Origin: [Borrelia] lusitaniae
Lineage (GTDB): Bacteria > Spirochaetota > Spirochaetia > Borreliales > Borreliaceae
Length of the DNA stretch: 45,668 nt
Assembly (NCBI RefSeq): GCF_030440365.1
Contig: NZ_CP124047.1
Coordinates: forward strand, 1-45,668
Direction of reading: 5' to 3'
Part shown: positions 1-45,668 of the stretch, in pieces
Layout of the letters: the number at the start of each line of letters is the position of its first letter
How positions within the stretch are numbered: position 1 is the first letter of the stretch
Made by a program: the position numbers and the translations under genes
The notes under the pieces: model-generated
What the model was told of the DNA's origin: nothing
What the model saw: the letters and a program-made list of their open reading frames with translations, nothing else
Database searches by the model: none

Positions 1-45
1 TTTTAAATTTTTCTATTGGATAGATTTTATACAAAGAAGGTAATA

Positions 46-327
46 ATGTATAAACAGCAATATTTTATTTCTGGCAAAGTACAAGGTGTTGGCTTTAGAT
101 TATTCACACAGCAAATAGCAAATAATATGAGACTAAACGGGTTTGTAAAAAATCTAAACGATGGAAGGGTAGAAATCGTAGCTTTTTTCAAAACTAAAGA
201 ACAAATAAAAAAATTTGAAAAATTATTACAAAATGGAAATAAGTATGCAAACATTGAAAATATTGAAAAAAAAACTTTAGATGAAAACTATCCTTTTCAA
301 TTTAATGATTTTAAAATTTATTATTAG
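46..327 (+). CDS. acyP: Acylphosphatase (cp26 BBB01), unit A
   Basis: A 93-residue small cytoplasmic enzyme expected to hydrolyse acyl phosphates. The N-terminal half carries the family signature GKVQGVGFR, whose Arg binds the phosphate, followed by GFVKNLNDGRVEI, whose Asn is the second catalytic residue. The start is the ATG at 46, which has AAAGAAGG (33-40) five bases upstream. An in-frame TTG at 16 lies inside the palindrome arm and has no ribosome site. Its 3' end overlaps the convergent BBB02 by 17 bases. It differs from the unit B copy at a handful of residues, for example Leu versus Ser right after the GFR motif. Confidence 0.9.
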   Translation: MYKQQYFISGKVQGVGFRLFTQQIANNMRLNGFVKNLNDGRVEIVAFFKTKEQIKKFEKLLQNGNKYANIENIEKKTLDENYPFQFNDFKIYY

Positions 328-757
328 GATTTATTTTTTGTTTTACAAACGGTTTAATTTTTTTAGTTCTTAGTTTAATATTGCTTGCATTAAAATTTTT
401 ATGCTTAAAATTAGGCAAGTCAGCTTTAAAAAAATGTTCAACTTTAAATTTTAAAAATTCTAAAGACTTTCTGTTTCTACAAAAGATATTAAGGTTGCCA
501 TCAGAAAATTTGATGTCAAGACCACAATTAGAATCTGTTTTTAAAAATCTACATAAAATAAAATTACCATTTGAACCATTCCTATTAAAAAGAATAAAAT
601 ATTTTTTACCTCTTTTGGAATCTTTAAAATAAATCTTAAGCCAATCTCCTGTTGGCTTAACTGAAACTAGTTCGTCATAAAGATAAGAAATATAAATCGT
701 TCTATTGTCATTAGATTTTAAAACTTTTTTAAAGAAATAACCAAGACCTATTTTCAT
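311..757 (-). CDS. Conserved cp26 protein BBB02, unit A
   Basis: An uncharacterised protein of 148 residues from the ATG at 757, or 161 from a TTG at 796. Neither start has a clear Shine-Dalgarno, so the start is uncertain. It is basic and Lys/Asn/Phe-rich, with no signal peptide or membrane segment. By position between acylphosphatase and resT it is BBB02 of cp26. The unit B copy differs only near the C terminus. I assign no function. Confidence 0.65.
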   Translation of the reverse strand: MKIGLGYFFKKVLKSNDNRTIYISYLYDELVSVKPTGDWLKIYFKDSKRGKKYFILFNRNGSNGNFILCRFLKTDSNCGLDIKFSDGNLNIFCRNRKSLEFLKFKVEHFFKADLPNFKHKNFNASNIKLRTKKIKPFVKQKINPNNKF

Positions 758-844
758 ATCAATTATATAATATCTTATTAATAAAATATTTCCCAATATT
801 TTTCAAATGTATTAACAATAATTAAAAATTCAATTAAGCAAAAA

Positions 845-42583: not shown

Positions 42584-43828
42584 ATGAGTTACTACGTGAT
42601 AAGCAAAATATTTCTATATTCTGGGTACCTTGCTATTGGATTTCTGTCTTTTACAATTTTCAATAAAAACTTACGAAATAAAATCAAAAACAAATTGAAA
42701 AATTTATACTTTTTGTATTATCTAACTTTTTTTATTCTTTTTATTGTCAGCTCAAATTTATCTTATTACTTCACTGAAAAACAGTTATTGGAAAATTTTA
42801 ATATATTTGAAAAAGAATTTCTTGAAATACATAAGATAAACGAACAATTTTTTCAAAAATACCTGTTAAATTTTACAGTACCAATAAGAATGGAATTGAT
42901 GTCAAAATTTGATCCAATGTATACAGTGTTTAATGCTAGTTTTGAGAAACATGCTAAAAACATTGGGAAAAGTTCTTATGAGATTCAAACAAATTATAAA
43001 AATTACATCAAAGCAACAAATTCAGAAATTAAAAAAAAATTAGAACAAATAAAAGAAAATATTATTCCTATTTATAATAAATATAAATTACCTATTCTAA
43101 ATGGAAAAAATACAGAAATAAGTATAGATGAGAATGGAAATATTATTCCTGTTTTAAAAAATGCAAAAGGAGAAATAACAGAGTTACTCTTTTACGATCA
43201 AAATTATAATTTAGTTCCCTTTAGAGAATTTGAAAGCTATAAAGTTAAATTTGATCTAATCCGAGAAAATAAAAATATTCACTTCAAGGAATTAATAAAC
43301 GTTTACTATCTTGATCAAAACAATATTATCACTCCCATAAAGTATTACAAAAATAATATAGAGACTAGTCCTTATTACATAGACTTACAAGAGGAGAAAG
43401 ATAATTTTCTTAATAGAATAAAAATCAAAAAAGAGTATGGTTTATACATTGAGAAAAAAAAGCAACTACAATATTTAACTGAAAATGATAAACTTGATGA
43501 TTTTAAAGAATTTTTAGCAAAGAATAATAATTTTTTTTCATTAAATACAATATTTTCTAACGGCAATCCAATATTTACTTATGCCATAAATGTAAAAGCA
43601 AAAAGTATATTAAATTATTTAATAACAAAAGAATTTAATATCAATTTAACAAATCAAAATTCTCAAACAGCTCTTCATAATGCCATAATTCAAAAATATG
43701 AATTAAATTTTATTAAATCGCTTATTAAAAAAGGTGCTAGCCCAAATATCAAAGATGCCGACAATAAACTACCCATAGATTACTGCGACAAGACCAGTGA
43801 AATTTATAAATATTTAATTAGCATTTAA
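42584..43828 (+). CDS. Membrane-anchored ankyrin-repeat protein (BBB28), unit B
   Basis: A 414-residue copy with the same two N-terminal membrane segments and C-terminal ankyrin-like region. The four differences from unit A (Leu/Ile, Glu/Asp, Ala/Ser, Ser/Gly) are mostly conservative. Unlike in A, it is followed by a long structured leader before the EIICB gene. Confidence 0.75.
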   Translation: MSYYVISKIFLYSGYLAIGFLSFTIFNKNLRNKIKNKLKNLYFLYYLTFFILFIVSSNLSYYFTEKQLLENFNIFEKEFLEIHKINEQFFQKYLLNFTVPIRMELMSKFDPMYTVFNASFEKHAKNIGKSSYEIQTNYKNYIKATNSEIKKKLEQIKENIIPIYNKYKLPILNGKNTEISIDENGNIIPVLKNAKGEITELLFYDQNYNLVPFREFESYKVKFDLIRENKNIHFKELINVYYLDQNNIITPIKYYKNNIETSPYYIDLQEEKDNFLNRIKIKKEYGLYIEKKKQLQYLTENDKLDDFKEFLAKNNNFFSLNTIFSNGNPIFTYAINVKAKSILNYLITKEFNINLTNQNSQTALHNAIIQKYELNFIKSLIKKGASPNIKDADNKLPIDYCDKTSEIYKYLISI

Positions 43829-43995
43829 CTTTATCATGCTAATTTGAATATTTAATTAATTAGCATCATAAAAATATTATGATTTACTTTATGCTAATCT
43901 TTACAAGATTGAAAAATCTTGTTAAGATATTAAGCATATTATTCAAATTAATTATTTTAATTAATTAATTTGATATTAATAAAAAGGGGAAAATT
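43829..43995 (+). promoter_or_regulatory. Structured leader upstream of the EIICB gene (unit B)
   Basis: ATGCTAATT (43836-43844) can pair with AATTAGCAT (43858-43866), which can alternatively pair with a second ATGCTAAT (43891-43898). A separate 8-bp hairpin follows (ACAAGATT-GAAA-AATCTTGT, 43903-43922). In unit A about 109 bp, including the last three elements, are missing. AAAGGGG is the ribosome site. Confidence 0.5.
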
Positions 43996-45624
43996 ATGTC
44001 AACATCATCCGCATCTATATCTATATTTACAATATTACAAAAAGTAGGAAAAGCTTTCATGCTTCCTATAGCACTTCTACCAGCAGCCGGAATTTTATTG
44101 GGAATTGGAGGAGCATTTACTAACGAGACAATGATTCAGGCTTATGGATTAGAAGAAATGCTTGGAAAAGGAACCGCAGCAAACTCAATCCTTTATCTTA
44201 TGAAATATACAGGAGAAGTAATTTTTGCTAACTTGCCTTTAATGTTTGCAGCAGCAATTCCAATAGGACTTGCCAAGGTAGAAAAAGGAACAGCTGCATT
44301 AGCAGGGGTAGTAGGCTTTTTGGTTATGCACCAAACCATAAATGGAATCTTGTACATACAAGGAATCACACCAGAAACTGCAAGTTTAAAAGCACTACTA
44401 GATTTAGGAATGCCTGAAACAGCTGCAACTGCAAAAAGTCAAGAATATACAAGTGTTCTTGGAATATTCTCTCTTCAAATGAGCGTAATGGGGGGACTAA
44501 TAGCAGGATTTGTCGCTGTCTTTCTTCATAACAGATTCTATAACATTCAATTACCCACATTTTTAGCATTTTTTGGAGGTACAAGATTTGTACCAATCGT
44601 AACCACAATGGCAATGTTTGTGGTAGGAATATTTTTAACATTTATTTGGCCATTTATCCAAGGTGCAATGACCGCATTTGGAAACATTGTAGAACAGTCT
44701 GGGCTTTTTGGAACATTTGCATACGGAGCAATAAAAAGATCTTTAATTCCTTTTGGACTTCACCACATATTTTATTTGCCATTTTGGCAAACAGCTGTGG
44801 GTGGAACATTGGAAATAAATGGAGAACTCATATCAGGAGCACAAAATATATTTTTCAAACAGCTTGCAGATCCTAATACTGTACACTTTGAAGTTGCAAA
44901 AGGAACAAGGTTTTTCAGCGGAGAATTTGTTGTTATGATTTTTGGATTACCTGGTGCTGCGCTTGCTATGTACCATACATCAAAACCTGAAAATAAAAAT
45001 AATGTAGCTTCATTGTTGTTATCTGCTAGTTTTACATCAATGTTAACAGGAATTACAGAACCTCTTGAATTTGCATTCCTTTTTGCAGCACCAGCGCTTT
45101 ATTATTTTATATATGTTCCTCTTTTTGGATTAGCATATCTTTTAACACACCTTTTAAACGTAGGAGTTGGACTAACATTTTCTGGAGGATTTATAGATAT
45201 GTTTCTATTTGGGATACTTCAGGGAAATAGCAAAACAAACTGGATAGCAATTCCTATTTTGGGAATCTTCTACTTTATTGGATTTTACTTTATATTTAAA
45301 TTTGCAATCATGAAATTTAATCTTAAAACAATAGGAAGAGAAGATGAAGAAATGGAAAAAGATAAAATAAGTTCAGAAAAAACAAATTTATCAGAAATTG
45401 CTTTAAAAGTATTAGAAGGTCTTGGAGGAAAAGATAATATTACATATATTGATGCATGTGCATCAAGACTAAGAATTAATTTAAAACAAATAGAATTCAT
45501 CAAATCAGATGCTTATTTCAAAAATCTGGGTGCTAGTGGACTATTAAAAAAAGGAAATAGTGTTCAAATTGTATTTGGAGGATTGTCCGATAACATAAAA
45601 ATGGAAATCGACAAGCTTATGTAA
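43996..45624 (+). CDS. PTS glucose/maltose-family EIICB permease (BBB29)
   Basis: A 542-residue membrane transporter that imports and phosphorylates a hexose, probably glucose or a maltose-type sugar. The EIIC domain (about 1-410) has ten or so membrane segments and the family motif FGLHHIFYLPFW. A charged linker (about 435-465) leads to the EIIB domain, whose phosphorylated residue is Cys488 in DACASRLRI. No EIIA domain is present, so a separate EIIA is needed. It has been named malX or glucose-specific EIIBC in cp26 annotations, and the substrate is not settled by sequence. It is the sole intact copy. Confidence 0.92.
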   Translation: MSTSSASISIFTILQKVGKAFMLPIALLPAAGILLGIGGAFTNETMIQAYGLEEMLGKGTAANSILYLMKYTGEVIFANLPLMFAAAIPIGLAKVEKGTAALAGVVGFLVMHQTINGILYIQGITPETASLKALLDLGMPETAATAKSQEYTSVLGIFSLQMSVMGGLIAGFVAVFLHNRFYNIQLPTFLAFFGGTRFVPIVTTMAMFVVGIFLTFIWPFIQGAMTAFGNIVEQSGLFGTFAYGAIKRSLIPFGLHHIFYLPFWQTAVGGTLEINGELISGAQNIFFKQLADPNTVHFEVAKGTRFFSGEFVVMIFGLPGAALAMYHTSKPENKNNVASLLLSASFTSMLTGITEPLEFAFLFAAPALYYFIYVPLFGLAYLLTHLLNVGVGLTFSGGFIDMFLFGILQGNSKTNWIAIPILGIFYFIGFYFIFKFAIMKFNLKTIGREDEEMEKDKISSEKTNLSEIALKVLEGLGGKDNITYIDACASRLRINLKQIEFIKSDAYFKNLGASGLLKKGNSVQIVFGGLSDNIKMEIDKLM

Positions 45625-45668
45625 AATTTTTAAAATAAAATATAAAAACAGCTAATCCAATAGAAAAA

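What the first reader, a model, noticed from the sequence alone, without database searches (positions are those of the whole stretch)
1..45668. A cp26 dimer whose halves have lost complementary gene sets
The window closes on itself and contains two head-to-tail cp26 units. Unit A has lost BBB10-BBB13 (replication/partition) and BBB29. Unit B has lost chbA, chbB, the MupG-like gene, oppAIV, guaB, guaA, both purine permeases and BBB24. I find no gene broken in both. This is what subfunctionalisation of a plasmid dimer would look like: recombination back to monomers would give one circle that cannot replicate and one lacking GMP synthesis and purine uptake, so the dimer should be selectively locked. 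cp26 is normally monomeric, and I know of no such dimer described.
Basis: partly seen in the sequence, partly recalled or inferred. Interest (0 to 1): 0.95.

Follow-up and report, generated by a model that had tools for sequence, protein, structure and literature searches.

The report
Borrelia cp26 dimer, halves complementarily decayed
The essential circular plasmid cp26 of the Lyme-group spirochaete Borrelia lusitaniae is a known head-to-tail double plasmid in which each half has lost genes that the other keeps; this analysis adds that most genes intact in both halves stay nearly identical, most likely because the halves keep copying each other, and that one crossover back to a single unit would always leave out some of the genes.

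Summary
The window is cp26 (45,668 bp) of B. lusitaniae PotiB2T; the dimer and its 14 one-sided gene losses are in print. I confirmed the 14 losses, none double, on the same units in PotiB3 and PoHL1.

Added here: (1) breakpoints identical in all three strains place the dimer before the lineage split. (2) Ten of the eleven pairs intact in all three strains group by lineage, not by half: 65 lineage-pattern against 2 unit-pattern sites in 8,283 columns; the no-exchange tree is 248 log units worse. The halves still recombine; ospC is the exception. (3) Retained copies look constrained, lost copies relaxed. (4) No single crossover gives a complete monomer, but 22 of 32 random patterns share that.

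The lock is partly supported. In B31 culture only resT plus bbb26 or bbb27 are essential, and bbb10-13 confer replication. Unit B has these, so a 20.5-kb monomer is predicted to live in culture. A lock would act in the tick-vertebrate cycle and is weakest at one crossover interval. The physical state was not tested.

The parts
1..25163 (.). Unit A of the cp26 dimer
   Evidence: self-comparison; gene order as in B31 cp26
25164..45668 (.). Unit B of the cp26 dimer
4006..5788 (+). chbA, chbB, MupG-like (BBB05-07): intact only in unit A
   Evidence: MupG_N/MupG_C; PTS IIA (below the curated cut-off) and IIB (above it)
28973..29714 (+). Remnant of chbA-chbB-MupG-like in unit B; the deletion upstream of chbA is identical in the three strains, the coding deletions differ between the lineages
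31642..34446 (+). BBB10-13 replication/partition locus (Borrelia_orfA, DUF226, ParA-type ATPase, Plasmid_parti): intact only in unit B
7623..10040 (+). Decayed BBB10-13 block of unit A; one deletion spanning BBB10-BBB11 has the same breakpoints (within 2 bp) in three strains
11332..15983 (.). oppAIV (+), guaB (-), guaA (-): intact only in unit A
35212..38936 (.). Decayed oppAIV-guaB-guaA block of unit B; a deletion with a 66-bp inverted piece has identical breakpoints in three strains
17141..20541 (-). BBB22 and BBB23 purine permeases and BBB24: intact only in unit A
   Evidence: PGAP 'NCS2 family permease' in PotiB3; no hit in the one library tried for each (permeases NCBIfam, BBB24 Pfam)
39567..40668 (-). 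Decayed permease-BBB24 block of unit B; two deletions have breakpoints shared by three strains
43996..45624 (+). BBB29 PTS IIBC gene: intact only in unit B
   Evidence: EIIB_glc domain above cut-off, IIBC models below it
23734..25119 (+). Broken BBB29 of unit A; the coding lesion differs in each of the three strains
845..2194 (-). resT of unit A, intact
   Evidence: 95% to B31 ResT over its length; the NCBIfam telomere resolvase hit is far below its cut-off
26008..27357 (-). resT of unit B, intact
16213..16842 (+). ospC of unit A (A-type), intact
38937..39566 (+). ospC of unit B (B-type), intact, 81% identical to the unit A copy
20438..23708 (.). Homogenised block BBB25-BBB28 of unit A, 99.6% identical to 40591-43861
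40591..43861 (.). Homogenised block BBB25-BBB28 of unit B
1..3865 (.). Homogenised block BBB01-chbC of unit A, 99.2% identical to 25164-29030; holds a 2,024-bp exact tract
9572..10669 (.). BBB14 segment, 98.7% identical to 34245-35343: the crossover interval at which the lock is weakest

Best explanation
This is the cp26 plasmid of B. lusitaniae PotiB2T, a head-to-tail dimer that, to judge by breakpoints shared by three strains, formed before the two sequenced lineages of the species split and in which 14 of 26 gene pairs now keep one intact copy, while the genes intact in both halves, apart from ospC, are kept nearly identical, most likely by gene conversion, and the two halves are likely held together because the only intact replication/partition locus (unit B) and the only intact GMP-synthesis and purine-uptake genes (unit A) lie in opposite halves. 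Shown: the anatomy, the shared breakpoints, the lineage-wise clustering of doubly intact genes, the relaxed substitution in lost copies, and the absence of a complete single-crossover product. Inferred: that conversion rather than double crossover does the copying; that the dimer joined two cp26s with different ospC types; and that selection in the tick-vertebrate cycle, not in culture, removes monomers.
For: Gene table of six units. Breakpoints shared by all three strains: oppA deletion plus 66-bp inversion; BBB10-11 deletion, two permease-BBB24 deletions and the deletion upstream of chbA; a guaA insertion found by both aligners. Ten doubly intact genes, 8,283 columns: 65 sites where both halves of the Poti strains differ from both halves of PoHL1, 2 sites split by unit, 13 splitting PotiB2 from PotiB3 in both halves; unit tree worse by 248 log units, AU p about 2e-161. 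About 0.6 such parallel sites are expected without exchange. PotiB2 against PoHL1, 12 one-sided genes (two permeases left out; the lost chbB gives no columns): retained copies 206 differences in 11,013 columns, 163 at third positions; lost copies 206 in 5,005, 97 at third positions, Fisher p 2e-11. Crossover enumeration. RecA present; no PF00589 recombinase in the held genome while 14 of 14 controls have one. Of 18 Borreliella genomes only this one has two full copies of the BBB28 gene.
Against: No reads, gels or copy number were seen. In B31 culture only resT and bbb26 or bbb27 are needed beside bbb10-13, so unit B alone should live in culture and the lock is not absolute. B. andersonii and B. 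sinica have debilitated guaA/guaB (passage of PMC11389397). Laboratory cp26 dimers of B31 are said to be stably maintained (PMC12958805), so no lock is needed to explain persistence. Interleaved loss is expected by chance (22 of 32 patterns) and so, nearly, is the lack of double loss (P = 0.089). One-sided genes also favour lineage-first grouping, the pure unit tree being 48 log units worse (AU p 2e-6, but SH p 0.09; in the chbA-MupG block alone the unit tree is not rejected, AU p 0.26), so exchange reached lesion blocks too. In the ten doubly intact genes 53 sites changed in one PoHL1 half only, 11 split the Poti halves, and 63 had other patterns, so homogenisation is incomplete. The held genome has 4 contigs and about 1.03 of 1.20 Mb, so the recombinase search is incomplete.
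Confidence: 0.62

Rival explanations
1. Inertia without a lock: Borrelia does not resolve plasmid dimers, so a chance dimer simply persisted; redundant copies decayed neutrally and purifying selection kept one copy of each gene. The halves depend on each other only as a by-product. (Not exclusive of the best explanation, which adds selection against monomers.)
For: Laboratory cp26 dimers reported stable; no PF00589 recombinase in the held genome; interleaving and absence of double losses are compatible with chance (22 of 32; P = 0.089).
Against: Exchange between halves has been frequent, and exchange with crossover would be expected to make monomers, yet all three isolates are dimers; persistence since before the lineage split then needs selection or very few crossovers.
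Confidence: 0.35
2. The dimer is kept for two different OspC antigens; the complementary gene loss is a side effect.
For: Of the eleven pairs intact in all three strains, ospC is the one not homogenised: A-type and B-type copies are 81-84% identical (the other ten, differ by at most 1.6% within a strain). PoHL1 added a third copy (also stated in PMC12958805). The authors suggest a possible link to reptile hosts.
Against: No expression data; two ospC genes do not need the other doubled genes; ospC diverges fast in B. burgdorferi as well.
Confidence: 0.3
3. Independent dimerisation in each lineage, which would also make halves look alike within a strain.
For: Lineage-wise clustering of the halves.
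Against: Shared deletion and inversion breakpoints on the same unit in all three strains; A-type and B-type ospC in both lineages.
Confidence: 0.04
4. Assembly artefact: two co-resident monomers or a misjoined circle.
For: No reads seen here; the halves share exact tracts up to 2,024 bp in PotiB2.
Against: Three isolates, two sequencing centres, PacBio (methods section); unit A lacks an intact replication locus; in PotiB3 one contiguous gap removes the end of unit A and the start of unit B while the B-to-A junction is whole; in PotiB2 any read over about 2.1 kb meets an A-B difference.
Confidence: 0.05

Closest known systems
Published cp26 dimers of B. lusitaniae PotiB2T, PotiB3, PoHL1 (PMC12958805; PMC11389397)
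   Same: This is the same molecule: 45,668 bp, 14 of 26 pairs with one broken member, two ospC types.
   Different: The papers, as far as I saw them, do not treat exchange between the halves, crossover products or a lock (0 occurrences of 'gene conversion', 'subfunctional' or 'selection' in the main text of PMC12958805; the two uses of 'gene conversion' in PMC11389397 concern other things).
Laboratory cp26 dimers of B. burgdorferi B31 (Tilly et al. 1998, cited in PMC12958805; the cp52 merodiploid drawn in PMC2229028)
   Same: cp26 doubles that can be maintained.
   Different: Recent, complete, laboratory-made; no decay reported in the passage. The 1998 paper was not held.
B. japonica lp54 inverted dimer (passage of PMC11389397)
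   Same: A plasmid dimer found in both sequenced isolates of a species of the same genus, with gene loss.
   Different: Linear, head-to-head; one part of the plasmid is lost altogether rather than complementarily.
Hodgkinia lineage splitting in cicadas (abstract excerpt and passages of PMC10287537)
   Same: Complementary loss makes formerly redundant genomes mutually dependent and enforces joint transmission.
   Different: Separate cell lineages and genomes; here one circle whose doubly intact parts are still homogenised.
cp32 fusion dimers (passages)
   Same: About double-size circles attributed to homologous recombination.
   Different: Fusions of different cp32s rather than dimerisation of one plasmid, in the authors' words.

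Membership tests
Published B. lusitaniae cp26 dimer | Two head-to-tail cp26 units, 45,668 bp in PotiB2T | tested here: met
Published B. lusitaniae cp26 dimer | 14 of 26 pairs with one broken member, none with two | tested here: met
   (PotiB2; 15 of 26 in PotiB3 and PoHL1 by my count, BBB01 of unit B being lost too)
Published B. lusitaniae cp26 dimer | Single covalent circle in the cell | not testable with these tools
   no reads or gels available
Reciprocal (complementary) gene loss after duplication | Each lost gene has an intact partner under purifying selection | tested here: met
   (163 of 206 retained-copy differences at third positions; permeases not in the pooled count, listed singly)
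Reciprocal (complementary) gene loss after duplication | Lost copies evolve under relaxed constraint | tested here: met
   (97 of 206 at third positions; 4.1% against 1.9% divergence)
Subfunctionalisation in the strict sense | Both copies kept, each with part of the ancestral function | tested here: not met
   one-sided pairs have one intact gene and one wreck; not assessed for ospC or other doubly intact pairs
Concerted evolution | Copies within a lineage more alike than orthologous copies between lineages although the duplication is older | tested here: met
   for ten genes pooled; age from shared breakpoints; single genes can deviate (BBB27 of PoHL1)
Selectively locked dimer | No single crossover gives a complete monomer | tested here: met
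   but 22 of 32 random patterns also meet it
Selectively locked dimer | Monomers are inviable or lose in the natural cycle | not testable with these tools
   B31 data predict a viable unit B circle in culture

The most novel reading that the evidence does not exclude
An essential bacterial plasmid has become an obligate dimer: within one circle, gene conversion keeps the still-redundant housekeeping parts uniform while interleaved reciprocal losses make every monomer defective in nature, so the double plasmid is a locked, two-allele (two-OspC) replicon, a single-molecule counterpart of Hodgkinia's complementary genomes.
Probability: 0.35. Interest if true: 0.75.

Novelty: already known. Interest (0 to 1): 0.45.

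Why it matters
The dimer is known, but what keeps it is not examined in the papers and passages I saw. Three genomes now show that the halves have recombined often and yet remain complementary, so the question whether reciprocal loss can make a plasmid multimer irreversible becomes testable, with a clear contrast: monomers are predicted to be tolerated in culture and to fail in the tick-vertebrate cycle. It also bears on a question the G3 authors leave open, whether two different cp26s took part: at the lineage split the halves appear to have been near-identical outside ospC, while the two ospC genes differ by about as much as two ospC types of B. burgdorferi do.

Tried and rejected
The first site-pattern count gave 68 unit-pattern sites in the oppA-guaBA block, which looked like a block exempt from exchange. 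One search put 65 of the 68 at 11900-12199, and one search suggests why: a 66-bp inverted piece beside a deletion there, which MAFFT misaligned. I replaced these counts by columns projected with BLAST. The permeases were then left out of the pooled counts, because their remnants match both paralogues (BBB23 alone gave a false 58 unit sites). Against a strict reading, the ratio of unit to lineage sites differs only weakly between doubly intact and one-sided genes (2:65 against 5:25, Fisher p 0.03); the strong contrast (66:78 against 142:29, p 4e-12) adds sites that changed in one half after the split, and faster change in dead copies contributes to it.

MAFFT listed single-base lesions shared by three strains in guaB and BBB12; BLAST did not confirm them. 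So I count 7 of 14 genes with a lesion shared by all three strains (BBB10, BBB11, oppA, guaA, BBB22, BBB23, BBB24), 2 uncertain (guaB, BBB12), and 5 with no shared coding lesion found (chbA, chbB, MupG-like, BBB13, BBB29).

Independent dimerisation was rejected. The doubly intact genes are less constrained than retained single copies (76 of 127 PotiB2-PoHL1 differences of unit A at third positions, against 163 of 206), as redundancy would predict; not followed further.

Literature. One search (head-to-tail dimer + plasmid + pseudogene + gene conversion) found 0 papers. One search (with 'gene conversion', 'dimer', 'cp26') found 8; I saw passages of 3 (PMC11389397, PMC3303823, PMC13155636) and only the listing of the other 5. 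In one search, 137 papers held two of three terms and 15 were listed, by title and abstract start only. Two papers disagree on BBB29: a mutant was recovered in PMC2229028 (Table 2), while a passage of PMC3485029 names it among genes needed in culture although it tests BBB29 mutants.

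
Full report
IDENTITY AND PRIOR KNOWLEDGE. The best matches of the window in the plasmid collection are Borreliella cp26 plasmids. Its length equals the cp26 of B. lusitaniae PotiB2T in Table 1 of PMC12958805 (G3, January 2026; I read the abstract, the cp26 section, the methods and passages). That paper calls the three B. lusitaniae cp26s partially degraded head-to-tail dimers, with 14 of 26 pairs having one broken member. 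PMC11389397 (mBio 2024; passages) had announced them. Among the 60 records listed (67 more were not listed), the only ones near double size are the other two B. lusitaniae plasmids (44,889 and 49,559 bp); the remaining 58 are 26.2-28.6 kb. Of 18 Borreliella genomes searched, 17 hold one full or nearly full copy of the BBB28 gene and the window's own holds two, both in this contig.

ANATOMY. With B31 proteins as queries, the 26 cp26 genes were scored in six units. PotiB2: 12 pairs open in both units; 9 genes broken in B (chbA, chbB, MupG-like, oppAIV, guaB, guaA, BBB22, BBB23, BBB24); 5 broken in A (BBB10-13, BBB29); none in both. PotiB3 and PoHL1 repeat the pattern on the same units and have also lost BBB01 of unit B. 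Family searches support the names of the MupG-like protein, BBB10-13, guaA, guaB, oppA and chbB above the curated cut-offs; chbA, ResT and the full BBB29 models match below them, and the permeases, BBB24 and BBB27 had no hit in the library tried, so these rest on B31 homology and PGAP names.

AGE. Large events have the same breakpoints in all three strains: the BBB10-BBB11 deletion of unit A, the two deletions in the permease-BBB24 block and the deletion upstream of chbA in unit B, and in oppA of unit B a deletion with a 66-bp inverted piece. A guaA insertion is found by two aligners. Seven of the 14 lost genes thus carry a lesion shared by all three strains, so the dimer is older than the split between the southern (Poti) and northern (PoHL1) lineages. 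Five genes (chbA, chbB, MupG-like, BBB13, BBB29) show no shared coding lesion, yet are lost on the same unit each time. Four of these lie downstream of an older lesion in their cluster, and BBB29 of unit A has a shortened upstream region in all three strains (Poti and PoHL1 with different ends). I infer that damage to an operon or promoter came first and the coding parts decayed later in each lineage.

EXCHANGE BETWEEN THE HALVES. If the halves had evolved apart since before the lineage split, unit A genes should group together across strains. They do not. In ten doubly intact genes, that is all pairs intact in the three strains except ospC (8,283 columns), 65 sites separate both halves of the Poti strains from both halves of PoHL1, 2 separate A from B, and 13 separate both halves of PotiB2 from both halves of PotiB3; 53 changed in one PoHL1 half only, 11 split the Poti halves and 63 show other patterns. 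Without exchange about 0.6 identical parallel changes are expected. The unit tree is 248 log units worse than the lineage trees. Within a strain the halves of these genes differ by 0-1.6%. In one-sided genes (4,374 columns, permeases left out) exchange is weaker: 25 lineage sites, 5 unit sites and 59 that separate A from B within the Poti pair. The best tree there is lineage first, then unit within Poti; the pure unit tree is 48 log units worse (AU p 2e-6, SH p 0.09; for the chbA-MupG block alone it is not rejected). So the halves seem to have been near-identical at the lineage split, have since drifted apart where one copy is dead, and are still being copied where both live. PotiB2 carries a 2,024-bp exact A-B tract over resT-chbC. 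I assume homologous recombination; RecA is present. I cannot tell conversion from double crossover.

OSPC. The exception is ospC: A-type and B-type copies are 81-84% identical while copies of one type are 91-99% identical across the three strains. In four B. burgdorferi strains ospC types are 82.6-86.5% identical although the rest of cp26 is 98.4-99.2% (passage of PMC3303823). I infer that two cp26s with different ospC types joined, other differences being few or erased; divergence after an identical duplication is not excluded.

CONSTRAINT. Between PotiB2 and PoHL1, retained copies of 12 one-sided genes differ at 206 of 11,013 columns, 163 at third codon positions; lost copies at 206 of 5,005, 97 at third positions. 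The surviving copies look purified by selection and the lost ones relaxed. Doubly intact genes lie between (76 of 127 at third positions, unit A copies).

IS IT LOCKED? Around the unit the intact copies lie A (chbA-MupG), B (BBB10-13), A (oppA-guaBA), A (permeases-BBB24), B (BBB29). Each single crossover between these blocks gives one circle without BBB10-13 and one that lacks at least two blocks; a complete monomer does not arise. The circle with BBB10-13 lacks guaA/guaB in four of five intervals; after a crossover at BBB14 it keeps guaA, guaB and the permeases. In B31, only resT and bbb26 or bbb27 are needed in culture, mutants of the other genes targeted were recovered singly or in blocks (bbb10-13 do not appear among those targets), and a plasmid with bbb10-13, resT, bbb26 and bbb27 replaced cp26, the cells reaching a lower final density (abstract and passages of PMC2229028). 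Unit B has this set, so its 20.5-kb circle is predicted to live in culture. In mice, B31 mutants in guaA, guaB, the permeases and chbB had low or reduced infectivity and BBB29 mutants intermediate to low (passages of PMC3485029, which calls its findings preliminary), so the BBB14 product may suffer as well; guaA and guaB are cited as essential in the tick-mouse cycle (reference title). So a lock, if any, works in nature. Against it stand B. andersonii and B. [quoted passage not shown]

PHYSICAL STATE. Not tested. In favour of the dimer: PacBio data from two centres, a PotiB3 gap that spans the A-to-B junction while B-to-A is whole, and in PotiB2 an A-B difference at least every 2.1 kb.

VERDICT. 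A known object, correctly read by the first-stage reader, with an over-strong claim of a lock and a missed literature record. What is added is the dating by shared breakpoints, the concerted evolution of the living parts, and a concrete prediction that separates lock from inertia.

Noticed in passing
L002 (PoHL1) unit B, about 35.4-44.6 kb of the record: PoHL1 has an extra tandem stretch in unit B with a second guaB-guaA remnant and a third ospC. By position, the copy at 39199-39840 is A-type (94% to the unit A copy) and the one at 42956-43582 is B-type (91% to the Poti B copies), so A-type DNA seems to have been copied into unit B.
   Followed up: partly
window 16113-16163 and 38815-38886: Upstream of each ospC lies an inverted repeat about where the ospC operator is known (recalled); in unit B the right arm is present three times (38832, 38853, 38874).
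   Followed up: no
window 3866-3957: The chbC-chbA intergenic region of unit A holds a 61-bp near-palindrome (3888-3948) that is missing from unit B in all three strains, so the intact chbC of unit B may lack part of its upstream control region.
   Followed up: partly
window 9502-9567 and 33819-33884: A 66-bp near-palindrome sits across the 3' end of parA (BBB12) in both units; the unit A copy matches the unit B copy 100% in inverted orientation.
   Followed up: no
whole held genome (G000, 4 contigs): No tyrosine recombinase of PF00589 was found although all 14 control genomes have one, so a Xer-like dimer resolution system may be absent; about 0.18 Mb of the published genome is not held.
   Followed up: partly
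L014 (B. turdi 047-3 cp26) 12578-13751: Transposase pieces between BBB14 and oppA, as the mBio paper notes.
   Followed up: no
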